A stretch of DNA of 64,000 nt from Chryseobacterium echinoideorum (GTDB taxonomy: Bacteria; Bacteroidota; Bacteroidia; Flavobacteriales; Weeksellaceae): assembly GCF_007474535.1 (NCBI RefSeq), contig NZ_VKNW01000010.1, positions 62,001 through 126,000 of the forward strand, given 5' to 3'. A program made the position numbers and the translations under genes. The notes under the pieces are model-generated. The model was not told the origin of the DNA and did not search any database. It worked only from the letters and a program-made list of their open reading frames with translations. Positions 40,769 through 45,441 of this stretch are shown piece by piece (positions within the stretch are counted from its first letter, which is position 1; each line of letters opens with the position of its first letter).

Positions 40769-41641
40769 TTAACGTTTGAAATAATCCTTATGAATTTTTC
40801 TACTATGCCTTAGACTTGGCATACCTATTTTTTTTCGGTTTCTATTTACTAATGCTGAATCTTTAATTGGTACATTAGAAAAAGTTCCGTATGAGTCTTC
40901 GTTGGTCATCAAATTGTACTTATCAATCATTGCTGCATAATCTTCCGGAGTACATTCTCCGTTTTTCAAGTATTTGAATAGTTGCTCTTTAAAATAAAGA
41001 TAAGTTGGGGTATCTCTTGTTGCCATGTGATTGAGCATATTCCCCATAGGCATAAAGATACCGTTATTGCCCCAAAGTCCTATTTTTTGTAGAGACGGAA
41101 ATCCTACTTCGTTAAATGTTCTGATTAGCAGTTCAGCGTTTTTCTCATCATTTGTTGCCTGTAGTTTACTATTATAAACCGGAGTCCTGAACTCTTGATT
41201 TCTGTAAAAAGCTACAGAGAAAGAATCTACAAGCTTCTTATCCAAATCTTTTTTCCAGTCGGCAATTTTGTTTTCTATTTCGATACTGTCTATTCCATGC
41301 TTTTTATACAAAGCAAAGAAATTTTTATCCATTCTGTTATATTTCCAATTGGGTGCAACAAGAGGAATTAATTTATACAGACTTTCTTTACCCCCGAAAT
41401 CCTTTTGGTATTTATCTGACAGCACAATATATGTCTGGTATTCATCAATAAGGTAAGAATTGTGGGGACGATACTTTTTAAATAGCTTATGATACATGTT
41501 TAAAGCAGCAACCGTATCATTCTTGAAACGATAGATACTATCAATCTTATTGACTTTATTGTAATAATTGACATAATTATATTTTCTCGTTTTACAAGAA
41601 AATAATAACAAAAAACATAGAAAGAAAATGATTTTATTCAT
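40769..41641 (-). CDS. DUF6624-like lipoprotein
   Basis: 290 residues from the ATG at 41641; an earlier start would add 12 residues before the signal peptide. MNKIIFFLCFLLLFSCKT is a lipoprotein signal with lipobox LFSC. The C-terminal half (VGFPSLQKIGLWGNNGIF, YKNG-like turn, PEDYAAMIDKYNLM, YGTFSNV, VNRNRKKIGMPSL) follows the order of DUF6624 proteins as I recall them. Function is unknown. It sits after the Cys-rich operon but is separated from it by a terminator. Confidence 0.6.
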   Translation of the reverse strand: MNKIIFFLCFLLLFSCKTRKYNYVNYYNKVNKIDSIYRFKNDTVAALNMYHKLFKKYRPHNSYLIDEYQTYIVLSDKYQKDFGGKESLYKLIPLVAPNWKYNRMDKNFFALYKKHGIDSIEIENKIADWKKDLDKKLVDSFSVAFYRNQEFRTPVYNSKLQATNDEKNAELLIRTFNEVGFPSLQKIGLWGNNGIFMPMGNMLNHMATRDTPTYLYFKEQLFKYLKNGECTPEDYAAMIDKYNLMTNEDSYGTFSNVPIKDSALVNRNRKKIGMPSLRHSRKIHKDYFKR

Positions 41642-41693
41642 ATAAGTTATTATTTTAAGAATCATCAAACTCAACATCTACTTTTTATATAAC

Positions 41694-41724
41694 AAAAAAA
41701 TCCTCTTTAAAGAAAGAGGATTCC
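41694..41724 (-). terminator. Intrinsic terminator of the Cys-rich/GLPGLI operon
   Basis: On the minus strand AATCCTCTTT, short loop, AAAGAGGATT and seven Ts, 11 bases beyond the stop of the last operon gene. Confidence 0.88.
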
Positions 41725-41734
41725 ACACTTGCAT

Positions 41735-42214
41735 CTATGCACATTCAACTCCGCATTCAAGAGAACAAAGTAAGACGCCTGATGTTGTTGGTTTATCATA
41801 ACAACCTTTTGTACGATGACATTTTGTTACACATTGTGTAGGTGTTTCTGCCAAACTTTCTATGCTATTTTCCGGACCTGTTAAAAGTTTCTTTAGATTA
41901 GCAACTGTATTCTCAGAAATCTCTTTATCTTCAATTGCATAATATGTTGCTATTGGTTTTTCATTTTTATCTAAAACAACTTTAAAATAAAAGCCTTCTC
42001 CTTTTGAGTTTTTTTTATAAATTACATAAAAAGCATCTCCTTTCTGATCAGAGCTTTTACTAAGGATATTGAATTTCTTATTCTTTGGCTCTTCATTTTT
42101 TTTGAACGAGCTAAAATATTCCTTATCATTTCCTACTTTTTCATTATTGTTTGCTTTGACTGTTATAAATGCCAATAATAAAAAAGCCAGTGTCATTAAA
42201 ATATTTTTTTTCAT
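41735..42214 (-). CDS. Secreted protein with six-cysteine tail, paralogue A
   Basis: 159 residues with a signal peptide (1-21). A charged middle domain (KGDAFYVIYKKNSKGEGFYF) leads to a C-terminal tail with Cys128, 132, 138, 150, 154 and 158: spacing C-X3-C-X5-C-X11-C-X3-C-X3-C. The residues CYDKPT and LCSLEC are shared with the protein at 43058-43507, which has exactly the same spacing. Outside the tail the two differ. Three disulfides in a helical hairpin would fit a secreted product. I do not recognise the family. It is the last gene of a three-gene operon. Confidence 0.75.
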   Translation of the reverse strand: MKKNILMTLAFLLLAFITVKANNNEKVGNDKEYFSSFKKNEEPKNKKFNILSKSSDQKGDAFYVIYKKNSKGEGFYFKVVLDKNEKPIATYYAIEDKEISENTVANLKKLLTGPENSIESLAETPTQCVTKCHRTKGCYDKPTTSGVLLCSLECGVECA

Positions 42215-42228
42215 AATGTTAGATTGTT

Positions 42229-43056
42229 TTAAAGTTCAATTTTGTTTTCTCTTTTATACTGTTCGATCATTTTCTTTTGAGTTTCGCCAAGCATTTTTTT
42301 CATATCAACGATATTACCATTTGCATCCTTTTTTTCATAAATTTGATGAGTATTCATCAATTCAAACATTCTTTTCAAGGGTGCCTGAGCATGACTCTTC
42401 CTCATTTCGACAAATTTCTCTTTTGTCGTTTCAATATACTTCCCTTTGGTAATGCGGTCGTTAATAGAGATTTTTTTCTCTTTAGAAATACCGACTGCTA
42501 AAAAATGATGATCCATTTTTTCATCAAAAATTTCAAGAATTAAGCCGGGTAATCCAAAAAATTTATATGGTCCGTCCTGAATTGGAATTTCTGCTGTGAA
42601 ATAAGCTTTATAGCTTCTGCCTGCATATATTACAGTTGCCGAAAGCACCTGAAATCCCATAATCTCTTTATTTTCTTTACTAATATTCCACTTAAGTTCG
42701 GGGTTTTCGTTATACTTAAATTCATGTTCATCAAATTCATCAGAATAATAAGTAATTTCTTTATTTAATACATTCTTTTTAATAAAGCAGCCAAGCAGAT
42801 CAGCAGGTAAGGCTTTAAAATTAATTTTCTTACCTTGTTTTTCATCTGCTGCCATAATAGAATCGCATAAATAAGGTGCCTCACTGAAAAAAGTAGAATA
42901 ATCTTCCTCAATATTCAAAAACGTATTCTGAGAAATTATTTTTGTGCTGTCTTTTTCTGCATGCTTGAAATAAGCATATTGAACAACAAATGATTGCCCT
43001 TTTGCACAAAAAATAGAATTAAAAAAAAGCAAAAGTAATAGGGAAGTATTTTTCAT
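42229..43056 (-). CDS. GLPGLI family protein
   Basis: 275 residues with a signal peptide (1-20). The naming motif GLPGLI is at 168-173 in FFGLPGLILEIFD. The family is widespread in Bacteroidetes, secreted, and without assigned function. Here it sits between two paralogous Cys-rich secreted proteins: one base after the stop of the first and 14 bases before the start of the second. It ends in a charged helical region (KKMLGETQKKMIEQYKREN). Confidence 0.9.
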   Translation of the reverse strand: MKNTSLLLLLFFNSIFCAKGQSFVVQYAYFKHAEKDSTKIISQNTFLNIEEDYSTFFSEAPYLCDSIMAADEKQGKKINFKALPADLLGCFIKKNVLNKEITYYSDEFDEHEFKYNENPELKWNISKENKEIMGFQVLSATVIYAGRSYKAYFTAEIPIQDGPYKFFGLPGLILEIFDEKMDHHFLAVGISKEKKISINDRITKGKYIETTKEKFVEMRKSHAQAPLKRMFELMNTHQIYEKKDANGNIVDMKKMLGETQKKMIEQYKRENKIEL

Positions 43057-43057
43057 G

Positions 43058-43507
43058 TTAAGCTCCGCTACATTCTAAAGTACAATCCAATGCACATAAT
43101 GCTGTACCCACTTCAGTAGGTTTGTTATAGCAATCCCATTTAGCTGTACATTTTGAAACACAATTACCAATAGTCAACACAGGTCCCGATGCCCCACCTC
43201 GTAAAGAATTCGCAGATGAAATAATTTGTAAAAGATTTGTTCTTATATTTTCTTTATTAGCAGAAAATAATTTTTCTAAACTTTTGTCACCCCCTAAAAC
43301 TTCCACAGAAAAAGATGTCACTTTACCTAAAAAACCTTCTCCGACAGACACTTTTAAATCATACACTTTATCATTATACTTTTTCTGTATAATTACGGTA
43401 TTGATTTTAATCTCTTTGAGTTCGTTTTTATAAATAAGCAAATTATCACCGCAATAGTGAAAACTAAAAACCAATAGAGCTAAAAATAAAAAAAATTGTT
43501 TTTTCAT
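43058..43507 (-). CDS. Secreted protein with six-cysteine tail, paralogue B
   Basis: 149 residues with an N-terminal export signal (hydrophobic to about 17). The C-terminal tail has Cys116, 120, 126, 138, 142 and 146, the same C-X3-C-X5-C-X11-C-X3-C-X3-C spacing as paralogue A, with CYNKPT and LCALDC in the same places. The middle region is a short beta-rich domain unlike that of A except for charge. A Gly-rich stretch (LRGGASGP) precedes the tail. It is the first gene of the operon; the divergent 194-base region toward the XRE regulator holds the promoters. Confidence 0.75.
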   Translation of the reverse strand: MKKQFFLFLALLVFSFHYCGDNLLIYKNELKEIKINTVIIQKKYNDKVYDLKVSVGEGFLGKVTSFSVEVLGGDKSLEKLFSANKENIRTNLLQIISSANSLRGGASGPVLTIGNCVSKCTAKWDCYNKPTEVGTALCALDCTLECSGA

Positions 43508-43701
43508 AATAATTAATATTATAGTTAAATTTAAGTTTAAATATTGCTAATGAATTACGTACTTCATCAACTTTTTTCATCAGTACTGATAGGTCAAAGA
43601 TGAAAAATATTTTTAATTTTCAGGCGTGAAATATTTGCGTTTTTTTTGTAATTTTTTGGTTTAATTTGAGCAAAATTTTAGATATTTGTACAAAAATCAC
43701 A

Positions 43702-44079
43702 ATGATACATGAAAAATTAAGAACTATCAGAAAGCAAAAAGGCATATCCCAGGAAAAAATGGCAAAAATATTATCAACAGATACCTCTAATTATTCACGA
43801 AAAGAACGTGGAGAAACCAAGATATACGATGATGAATGGGAGAAGATTGCACAAGCACTTGAAGTTCCTGTAGAGGAACTGAAGGAAAGCCCAAAAAATT
43901 TAATTAAAAACGATAATTCTACTTTTAATGATAATTCAGGGAATTATAATCAATATTATTCATATCCTAATCATTTAGACGATTATATAACCCTGCTTAA
44001 AGAACAAAACCAATTGCTAAAGGAAGAAAATTCAACACTTAAAAATGATCTTGAAATTGCCAAGGGAAATAACAAGTAA
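43702..44079 (+). CDS. XRE-family regulator with C-terminal coiled coil
   Basis: 125 residues from the ATG at 43702; a TTG at 43666 is possible but upstream of the natural helix-turn-helix start. Residues 4-60 are an HTH_3 domain (LRTIRKQKGISQEKMAKIL and DTSNYSRKERGE). An Asn-rich linker (NDNSTFNDNSGNYNQYY) leads to a coiled coil (YITLLKEQNQLLKEENSTLK). It is divergent from the Cys-rich/GLPGLI operon and may control it; that is inference from position. A remnant of a similar regulator lies at 35602-35844. Confidence 0.85.
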   Translation: MIHEKLRTIRKQKGISQEKMAKILSTDTSNYSRKERGETKIYDDEWEKIAQALEVPVEELKESPKNLIKNDNSTFNDNSGNYNQYYSYPNHLDDYITLLKEQNQLLKEENSTLKNDLEIAKGNNK

Positions 44080-44119
44080 TAGAATAGAAAATTATTCATC
44101 CTAGTTTAAAAACATAAAA

Positions 44120-44150
44120 AAGTCCGTTTCATTATTGGTGAAACGGACTT
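44120..44150 (-). terminator. Terminator shared by serS and the XRE gene
   Basis: AAGTCCGTTTCA and TGAAACGGACTT arms. On the minus strand the stem is followed by six Ts, so it mainly serves serS. Confidence 0.82.
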
Positions 44151-44172
44151 CTTATTGGTAAGCAAAAAGGTT

Positions 44173-45441
44173 TTAGTTAATCAAATCAAATTTTGCATAT
44201 TCAGCAATTTTCTTTGGAAGTTTTATTCCTCTTTCTGTCTGGTTGTTCTCCAGTAAAGCCGCCATAATTCTTGGCAGTGCCATTGCAGAACCATTCAATG
44301 TGTGAACCAACTGAGATTTTCCGTCTGCTTTATAACGGCATTTCAATCTGTTCGCCTGAAAAGTTTCAAAATTGGAAACAGAGCTTACTTCAAGCCATTT
44401 CTCCTGTGCCGCACTCCATACTTCAAAATCGTATGTCATAGCTGAAGCAAAACCTGTATCTCCGCCACACAGTCTTAGAACTCTGTATGGAAGCTCCAGA
44501 TCTTCCAGAATATCTTTAATATGGTCTACCATCTCTTCCAGAACAGCGTAAGAATTTTCAGGTTTTTCAAGCCTTACTATTTCTACTTTTTCAAACTGAT
44601 GAAGACGATTCAGACCTCTTACATGAGCTCCGTAACTTCCTGCTTCTCTTCTATAGCATTGAGAGAACGCCGTATTTTTAATAGGAAGGTCTTTTTCATC
44701 CAGTAAAACATCGCGGTAAAGATTGGTTACCGGAACTTCGGCAGTAGGAATTAGGTATAAATCATCAAGACCAATGTGATACATCTGCCCTTCTTTATCC
44801 GGCAATTGTCCCGTTCCGTATCCGGAAGCTTCGTTTACCACATGAGGAGGATTAACTTCCTCATAACCTGCATCTACATTTTTATCTAGGAAATATTGCA
44901 CCAAAGCTCTCTGCAATCTCGCTCCCTTTCCGAGATAAACCGGAAACCCTGCTCCGGCAATCTTTACTCCCAGTTCAAAATCAATCAGATTATATTTTTT
45001 TGCCAGCTCCCAGTGAGGAATAGCTCCTTCACCTAAACCTTCAACATCATGAGACTGATAAATAATTTCGTTATCGTCAGCAGAAACTCCGTTTTTTACC
45101 AGTTCGTTGGGAATATTGGGAATTTGATAAAGAATGTCAAGTAAAGCTTTTTCTTTAATTTCTAACTGAGACTGCAATTCTTTGCTCGACTCTTTATACT
45201 GCGCTGTTTTAGATTTGGATGCTTCGGCTTCTTCTTTTTTTCCTTCTTTCATCAGCATACCAATCTCTTTAGAGATTTTATTGATTTCTGACAATTGGGA
45301 ATCTAATTCAAACTGAATTTTTTTTCTTTGTTCATCGGTAGCAATAGCTTCATCTACCAGATCAAGATGCCTGAACTGTCTTTTCTTAAGACCTTCTAAA
45401 ACGCGTTCTTTATTGTCGCGCAAAAACTGAACCTGTAACAT
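44173..45441 (-). CDS. serS: Seryl-tRNA synthetase
   Basis: 422 residues, full length. It charges tRNA-Ser (and tRNA-Sec where present). The N-terminal coiled-coil arm (about 25-105) grips the tRNA long variable arm. Class II motifs follow: motif 2 FSQCYRREAGSYGAHVRGL and motif 3 HTLNGSAMALPRIMAALLE. The start is an ATG. Confidence 0.97.
   Translation of the reverse strand: MLQVQFLRDNKERVLEGLKKRQFRHLDLVDEAIATDEQRKKIQFELDSQLSEINKISKEIGMLMKEGKKEEAEASKSKTAQYKESSKELQSQLEIKEKALLDILYQIPNIPNELVKNGVSADDNEIIYQSHDVEGLGEGAIPHWELAKKYNLIDFELGVKIAGAGFPVYLGKGARLQRALVQYFLDKNVDAGYEEVNPPHVVNEASGYGTGQLPDKEGQMYHIGLDDLYLIPTAEVPVTNLYRDVLLDEKDLPIKNTAFSQCYRREAGSYGAHVRGLNRLHQFEKVEIVRLEKPENSYAVLEEMVDHIKDILEDLELPYRVLRLCGGDTGFASAMTYDFEVWSAAQEKWLEVSSVSNFETFQANRLKCRYKADGKSQLVHTLNGSAMALPRIMAALLENNQTERGIKLPKKIAEYAKFDLIN

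What the first reader, a model, noticed from the sequence alone, without database searches (positions are those of the whole stretch)
40769..44079. Two paralogous six-cysteine secreted proteins around a GLPGLI protein, with a divergent XRE regulator
Seen directly: proteins at 41735-42214 and 43058-43507 both end in a tail with exactly C-X3-C-X5-C-X11-C-X3-C-X3-C, sharing CY[DN]KPT and LC[SA]L[ED]C, while their middles differ. A GLPGLI protein lies between them with gaps of 1 and 14 bases, a terminator closes the operon, and an XRE regulator with an Asn linker and coiled coil is divergent. All three operon products have export signals. Inference: a secreted disulfide-rich product (effector, signal or envelope factor) with GLPGLI as a carrier, immunity or maturation partner. 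I know no described system of this form; the GLPGLI family has no function assigned.
Basis: partly seen in the sequence, partly recalled or inferred. Interest (0 to 1): 0.75.

Follow-up and report, generated by a model that had tools for sequence, protein, structure and literature searches.

The report
Paired six-cysteine secreted proteins with GLPGLI
A small gene cassette of Chryseobacterium and its relatives pairs two exported, six-cysteine proteins with one particular member of a widespread bacterial protein family of unknown role, which suggests that this family may carry or handle small exported proteins.

Summary
Genes A (43058-43507), GLPGLI (42229-43056) and B (41735-42214) form a tight operon with a terminator and a divergent XRE gene; the genome holds a second such cassette. 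In 23 aligned tails from five genera the six Cys and one Gly are invariant with identical spacing, while the A and B middles show no detectable kinship. No significant Pfam, NCBIfam, PHROGs, PADLOC or PDB-sequence match covers A or B. Of 296 family genomes, 14 hold the tail (three of them as broken, truncated or four-Cys copies). The cassette's own GLPGLI subtype is in 9 of these 14 and in none of the other 282; all 11 copies adjoin a tail gene. Its predicted fold is a half-barrel, nearest the N-terminal domain of PNGase F-II, then VioE and LolA. More widely, 15 of 71 GLPGLI genes follow a small exported Cys protein, against 9 of 343 control genes. Best reading: A and B are Sec-exported proteins with disulfide-stapled helical tails, and GLPGLI is their periplasmic carrier or chaperone. 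An antagonistic or signalling role is inferred only. Counter-examples: a four-Cys relative has XRE but no nearby GLPGLI; two loci use another GLPGLI plus an ABC pair.

The parts
43058..43507 (-). Gene A: exported protein, 149 aa, six-Cys tail at its C-terminus
   Evidence: ORF; homologues 23-91% identical in nine-row alignment A10; tail residues 116-146
42229..43056 (-). GLPGLI protein, 275 aa, predicted half-barrel
   Evidence: TIGR01200 147.4 bits, cut-off 50; Porph_ging 37.1 bits, cut-off 25; model and fold search
41735..42214 (-). Gene B: exported protein, 159 aa, six-Cys tail at its C-terminus
   Evidence: ORF; 13-row alignment; model
41738..41839 (-). Six-Cys tail of B with two residues before and one after
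43067..43168 (-). Six-Cys tail of A with two residues before and one after
41697..41724 (-). Terminator-like hairpin after B
   Evidence: 12 pairs, 3 of them G-C, then T run
43702..44079 (+). Divergent XRE regulator, 125 aa
   Evidence: HTH_3 E 1.3e-9; divergent XRE in 9 of 12 A-containing cassette loci
43579..43590 (.). Candidate operator: 12-base perfect palindrome; a different perfect palindrome of the same form stands at the like place in C. binzhouense L075
   Evidence: low complexity of the region, not tested against chance
43550..43567 (.). Second imperfect palindrome, also in L075 on the reading strand
   Evidence: not tested against chance

Best explanation
The cassette makes a pair of exported proteins together with a dedicated periplasmic handler. 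XRE (inferred) holds the operon off until a cue arrives. A, GLPGLI and B go through Sec (inferred from N-termini). The A and B tails fold as helical hairpins stapled by three nested disulfides, C1-C6, C2-C5, C3-C4 (inferred from spacing, the B model and one natural four-Cys variant), joined by a possibly cleavable linker to a less conserved N-terminal domain. GLPGLI, predicted to be a LolA-like half-barrel, binds A and B in its concave face and holds or escorts them in the periplasm (inferred). The released pair acts at or outside the outer membrane, most likely against competitors or as a signal (inferred). My odds: real conserved module 0.97; GLPGLI acts directly on A/B 0.7; carrier or chaperone rather than immunity 0.5; antagonistic role 0.35.
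For: Second cassette in the same genome. Six Cys and one Gly invariant in 23 of 23 aligned tails. Mean identity of tail against middle 0.67 to 0.46 for B and 0.56 to 0.35 for A. Cassette-type GLPGLI in 9 of 296 genomes, 11 copies, all beside a tail gene, all within the 14 tail-positive genomes (Fisher 4.7e-14 without correction for descent). Cassette GLPGLIs on one side of a branch in an 83-row quick tree, support 90. GLPGLI model: PNGase F-II N-terminal domain Z 17.1, VioE 10.1, LolA 9.4, RseB 8.8. B model: helices 125-136 and 144-158 after a stretch under pLDDT 50. Small exported Cys protein upstream of 15 of 71 GLPGLI genes.
Against: The four-Cys relative in G270 has a divergent XRE but no GLPGLI in 16 kb. 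In G190 and G222 the tail sits with a different GLPGLI and an ABC pair. A is missing in L051 and L056. 56 of 71 surveyed GLPGLI genes have no such small neighbour upstream, so the family has other roles too. In the three genomes that supplied the controls the excess is weaker: 7 of 44 against 9 of 343 genes (p 8e-4) and against 3 of 85 exported genes (p 0.018). Both models have mean pLDDT near 70. LolA-like folds also serve as sensors (RseB) and enzymes (VioE), so fold alone does not show a carrier. No binding, export or activity was tested.
Confidence: 0.42

Rival explanations
1. Two-component antibacterial with immunity: A and B are a toxin pair and GLPGLI is the periplasmic protein that neutralises them in the producer.
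For: Three-gene order with one GLPGLI per A/B pair; patchy spread, 14 of 296 family genomes; no cassette-type GLPGLI found away from a tail gene.
Against: Immunity genes often persist alone as orphans, and none was seen among 296 genomes (best 8 candidates scored per genome); G027 keeps an intact B with only the C-terminal end of GLPGLI seen at a contig start, and G270 has a tail gene with none nearby.
Confidence: 0.22
2. Envelope factor: A and B are structural or protective proteins of the periplasm or outer membrane and GLPGLI is an RseB-like sensor or assembly factor; XRE tunes the set to stress.
For: Half-barrel fold shared with RseB/MucB (Z 8.8); PhoP of Riemerella acts on GLPGLI genes, whose tables list several (PMC9603813, passages).
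Against: Rare and patchy, unlike a general envelope part; two cassettes in one genome and several broken copies fit an accessory trait better.
Confidence: 0.15
3. Signal system: processed tails act as peptide signals and XRE answers to them.
For: Divergent XRE in 9 of 12 A-containing cassette loci and also beside the GLPGLI-free relative in G270.
Against: No receptor or importer gene is linked in the cassette; XRE acts in the cytoplasm and no route inward was found.
Confidence: 0.12

Closest known systems
GLPGLI family (TIGR01200; Pfam Porph_ging PF09697)
   Same: The middle gene is a full member: 147.4 bits against a cut-off of 50.
   Different: A distinct subtype bound to the six-Cys genes; the family has no stated function in the three papers found.
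LolA/LolB, RseB and VioE half-barrels; N-terminal domain of PNGase F-II
   Same: Predicted fold: Z 17.1 to PNGase F-II, 10.1 VioE, 9.4 LolA, 8.8 RseB; Pfam PNGase_F-II_N hit in 10 of 10 cassette GLPGLIs at E up to 0.01, the window's own below the cut-off.
   Different: No catalytic PNGase domains in a 275-aa protein; A and B are not lipoproteins by their N-termini (read by eye); ligand unknown.
Bacteroidetocins (PMC6671954, passages read)
   Same: Small disulfide peptides of Bacteroidota.
   Different: Bacteroidetocins have a 15-aa GG leader, four Cys, and a peptidase-ABC exporter and thiol oxidoreductase; here a Sec-type N-terminus, a large middle, six Cys and none of these genes in the operon.
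Alpha-hairpinins of plants (recalled, no call)
   Same: Two Cys-x3-Cys helices joined head to tail by nested disulfides.
   Different: Three disulfides expected here rather than two; no sequence match of the tail in PDB or Pfam.

Membership tests
GLPGLI family TIGR01200 | Score over the curated cut-off over nearly the whole model | tested here: met
   147.4 bits, cut-off 50, model 4-226 of 229
LolA-type carriers | Half-barrel fold | tested here: met
   LolA 2w7q Z 9.4, rmsd 3.6, 136 aligned, on a model of mean pLDDT 71.7; moderate only
LolA-type carriers | Carries lipoproteins or another hydrophobic cargo | not testable with these tools
   needs binding assays
PNGase F-II | Catalytic PNGase domains after the N-terminal domain | tested here: not met
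   275-aa protein; Pfam finds Porph_ging and the N-terminal domain only
Bacteroidetocins | GG leader, peptidase-ABC exporter and thiol oxidoreductase in the cluster | tested here: not met
   operon and neighbours read in 36-48 kb; seven proteins scanned
Two-peptide bacteriocin with immunity protein | Killing that needs both peptides, and protection by the third gene | not testable with these tools
   needs assays
Grasp-with-spasm RiPP cluster | ATP-grasp and SPASM maturase beside the precursor | tested here: not met
   A C-terminal piece of TIGR04193 stands beside the L076 cassette (147.9 bits, under its cut-off of 175); none among the window genes scanned
Known anti-phage defence or phage protein families | Model match of A, B or GLPGLI | tested here: not met
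   no match at E 0.01 in PADLOC or PHROGs for these three; only XRE matches general regulators

The most novel reading that the evidence does not exclude
Part of the GLPGLI family is a set of LolA-fold periplasmic carriers, each dedicated to its own small Sec-exported disulfide protein: six-Cys A/B here, short Cys-Gly proteins elsewhere. Together they would be an undescribed route by which Bacteroidota assemble and release small cysteine proteins, with the A-GLPGLI-B cassette as its most elaborate form.
Probability: 0.3. Interest if true: 0.85.

Novelty: new variant of a known kind. Interest (0 to 1): 0.6.

Why it matters
GLPGLI genes number 11 to 27 in the four Chryseobacterium genomes searched at E 1e-6, yet the three papers of the library that hold the word give them no function in what I saw (passages of two, listing only of the third). 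A predicted fold and a specific, recurring gene partner turn 'what does GLPGLI do?' into a direct test: pull down GLPGLI and look for its neighbour. If A and B prove active, they are a new family of disulfide-stapled bacterial proteins.

Tried and rejected
Chance or artefact: rejected by the second cassette and the constant spacing. Gene 40769-41677 as a member: rejected (terminator). Phage or plasmid carriage: no hit for the B profile in viral contigs, for B in plasmids, or for A in phages; other combinations were not run. Spread beyond the family: the tail searched in 395 order and 395 phylum genomes gave, outside the family, only weak hits in G336, G454, G792, G827, G843 and G877; read in plain frames, none shows the six-Cys tail. 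Fold of B's middle: Foldseek best E 0.16, VIA-align best Z 5.4, inconclusive; the tail was not folded alone and A was not folded. A shared XRE operator across genera: none clear; an inverted repeat in L048/L081 has only partial likeness in L057 and L058. Small Cys proteins as known bacteriocins: best NCBIfam hit E 0.14; Pfam best E 0.0021, under its cut-off. Papers: none of the library holds all of Chryseobacterium, bacteriocin, cysteine-rich and signal peptide, nor both PNGase F-II and bowl-like; searches listed nothing on this system (listings only, apart from PMC11885536 and PMC6671954, of which I read passages).

Errors made and mended: one search printed Fisher tests on a mistyped 16 of 71; one search repeats them with 15 of 71. 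In one search the GLPGLI of L057 was translated in a wrong frame and left out of the tree (83 of 84 rows kept); its frame is open from a GTG. On that check I mended the count of GLPGLI genes from other genomes in the survey (15, not 14) and the best stretch of the GLPGLI model, read the other five weak hits outside the family, and added the same-genome comparison and the signal test.

Limits of the survey: of 79 rows, four long ORFs (559-586 aa, taken as PNGase-like without a scan) and two rows of one broken G019 gene were dropped and two rows of one G012 gene joined, leaving 72; L092 gave no ORF, leaving 71, of which 15 come from nine genomes outside the genus. The 27 control regions of 20 kb were spaced by hand over three Chryseobacterium genomes. 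Some control hits are plainly spurious ORFs, which makes the control generous. The signal rule is a hydropathy test. One search scored the best 8 candidates of each genome. The tree is the quick one; the careful search did not finish.
Full report
What is there. Window genes A (43058-43507), GLPGLI (42229-43056) and B (41735-42214) lie on the minus strand with gaps of 1 and 14 bases; a terminator-like hairpin follows at 41724-41697 and an XRE gene diverges at 43702-44079. A and B share C-x3-C-x5-C-x11-C-x3-C-x3-C. BLASTP gives E 3e-12 for the pair, but a comparison of the two family profiles aligns 43 columns at the tail and nothing of the middles.

A cassette, not a coincidence. Protein A hits 9 of 173 genomes of the genus. 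The own genome has a second A-GLPGLI-B set on contig C9 with its own divergent XRE. The B profile hits 13 of 296 family genomes and the tail profile 14 of 296, in 7 of 33 genera; three of the 14 are not whole six-Cys genes (G142 broken, G222 a 45-aa ORF, G270 four Cys). Searches of 395 order and 395 phylum genomes gave nothing real outside the family. One scan of named genomes gives ten loci: Chryseobacterium binzhouense (two), C. edaphi, C. daeguense, Chryseobacterium sp. Leaf405 and YIM B08800, Amniculibacterium aquaticum, Frigoriflavimonas asaccharolytica and two MAGs.

Conservation. In 23 aligned tails from five genera the six Cys and one Gly are invariant and the spacing never changes; two broken or truncated copies keep the spacing too. 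Mean pairwise identity is 0.67 in the B tail against 0.46 in its middle, and 0.56 against 0.35 for A. No significant match to A or B was found in Pfam, NCBIfam, PHROGs or PADLOC, nor by sequence in PDB.

The partner is specific. The cassette-type GLPGLI (E up to 1e-60 with profile A9) is in 9 of 296 genomes, 11 copies, and each copy adjoins a tail gene by coordinates; one of these tail genes, on G201 C4, is broken. The 9 genomes are all among the 14 with the tail (Fisher 4.7e-14, not corrected for descent). The other five: G027 shows only the C-terminal end of such a GLPGLI, at a contig start; G142 has a broken B and no GLPGLI of this type; G190 and G222 have the tail before an ABC ATPase, a permease and a different GLPGLI; G270 has a four-Cys relative with a divergent XRE and no GLPGLI in 16 kb. 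In a quick tree of 83 GLPGLIs the 11 cassette rows lie on one side of a branch, support 90, ten of them at 99.

Variants. A is absent in L051 and L056; in L061 the order is A-B-GLPGLI. Of 12 distinct A-containing cassette loci (window, L048, L049, L050, L052, L053, L054, L057, L058, L061, L075, L081; not independent of each other), nine have a divergent XRE gene, two (L050, L053) a divergent TPR-AraC protein and one (L061) a cNMP-binding protein upstream. XRE genes of window, L048, L049 and L057 were scanned; the others follow from the clustering or, for L075 and L081, from reading.

Structures. B: signal helix, four strands and a helix between 49 and 112, a stretch 113-122 under pLDDT 50, then helices 125-136 and 144-158; mean pLDDT 70.4. 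With C128 and C132 on the first helix, C138 between, and C150, C154, C158 on the second, a hairpin would bring C1 to C6, C2 to C5 and C3 to C4; this is inference. The G270 relative has no Cys at C6 and one Cys fewer upstream, the remaining one shifted by two places, which fits loss of the C1-C6 pair (a single case). GLPGLI: mean pLDDT 71.7, about 88 or more from 121 to 190. Foldseek E 7e-9 to PNGase F-II. VIA-align Z 17.1 (rmsd 3.0, 169 aligned) to its N-terminal part, 10.1 to VioE, 9.4 to LolA 2w7q (rmsd 3.6, 136 aligned), 8.8 to RseB (rmsd 5.0, 127 aligned). LolA proteins are Sec-exported periplasmic carriers, of which Flavobacterium johnsoniae has three (PMC11885536, passages).

A wider rule, perhaps. 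Of 71 GLPGLI genes in 13 genomes, 15 have within 400 bases upstream on the same strand an ORF of 40-170 aa with an export signal by my rule and at least two Cys; random regions of three of these genomes give 9 of 343 genes, and 3 of 85 exported genes of 150-400 aa. Fisher p 3e-7 and 6e-4; without the two six-Cys cassettes 4e-6 and 2e-3. Within the three control genomes alone it is 7 of 44, p 8e-4 and 0.018. The 13 neighbours that are not six-Cys are 68-102 aa long and 12 of them hold a Cys-Gly (my count); nine of these, and one more from L089, were scanned and none passes a cut-off. In G190 four small exported genes alternate with six GLPGLI genes. The GLPGLIs with small neighbours lie in several parts of the tree and only one is in its largest group of 33.

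Reading. Shown: cassette, invariant tail, specific GLPGLI subtype, a regulator upstream. Predicted: half-barrel, helical hairpin. Inferred: export, disulfide ladder, carrier role, action outside the cell. I prefer carrier or chaperone to immunity because of the fold and because no solitary cassette-type GLPGLI was found; the margin is modest.

Verdict. A real cassette that I found described nowhere in the searches made, with a sharply defined partner; its function is open but now testable. Interest 0.6.

Noticed in passing
L222:7496-8363 (G270): Four-Cys relative of the tail genes (128 aa) with a divergent XRE gene and no GLPGLI in 16 kb.
   Followed up: partly
L062:5892-8399 and L095:10790-15550 (G190): Four small exported genes alternate with six GLPGLI genes; the last has the six-Cys tail and is followed by an ABC ATPase, a permease and a GLPGLI, then an outer-membrane-receptor-like gene.
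   Followed up: partly
L089:1003-4997 (own genome, contig C26): XRE gene divergent from a small exported protein of 77 aa, two more exported-looking genes, a signal peptidase S26 and a GLPGLI: another XRE/small protein/GLPGLI set.
   Followed up: partly
L085:5299-10680 (own genome, contig C31): Small exported two-Cys protein, GLPGLI, a 912-aa protein with a CarboxypepD_reg start, and a second GLPGLI in a row.
   Followed up: no
L076:7700-11515 (C. edaphi): C-terminal piece of a grasp-with-spasm SPASM maturase, a bacteriocin-type ABC exporter and a HlyD gene lie just beyond this cassette.
   Followed up: partly
L059:6413-6676 (G142); L060:6156-6700 (G201): Broken copies of B, a sign that the cassette is lost in some lineages.
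   Followed up: partly
window 44117-44153: Strong terminator-like hairpin readable on both strands between the XRE gene and the seryl-tRNA synthetase-like gene at 44173-45441 (the latter named by reading).
   Followed up: no
L048:5140-5266 and L081: Inverted repeat in the gap between XRE and A, partly kept in L057 and L058: a lead for the XRE operator.
   Followed up: partly
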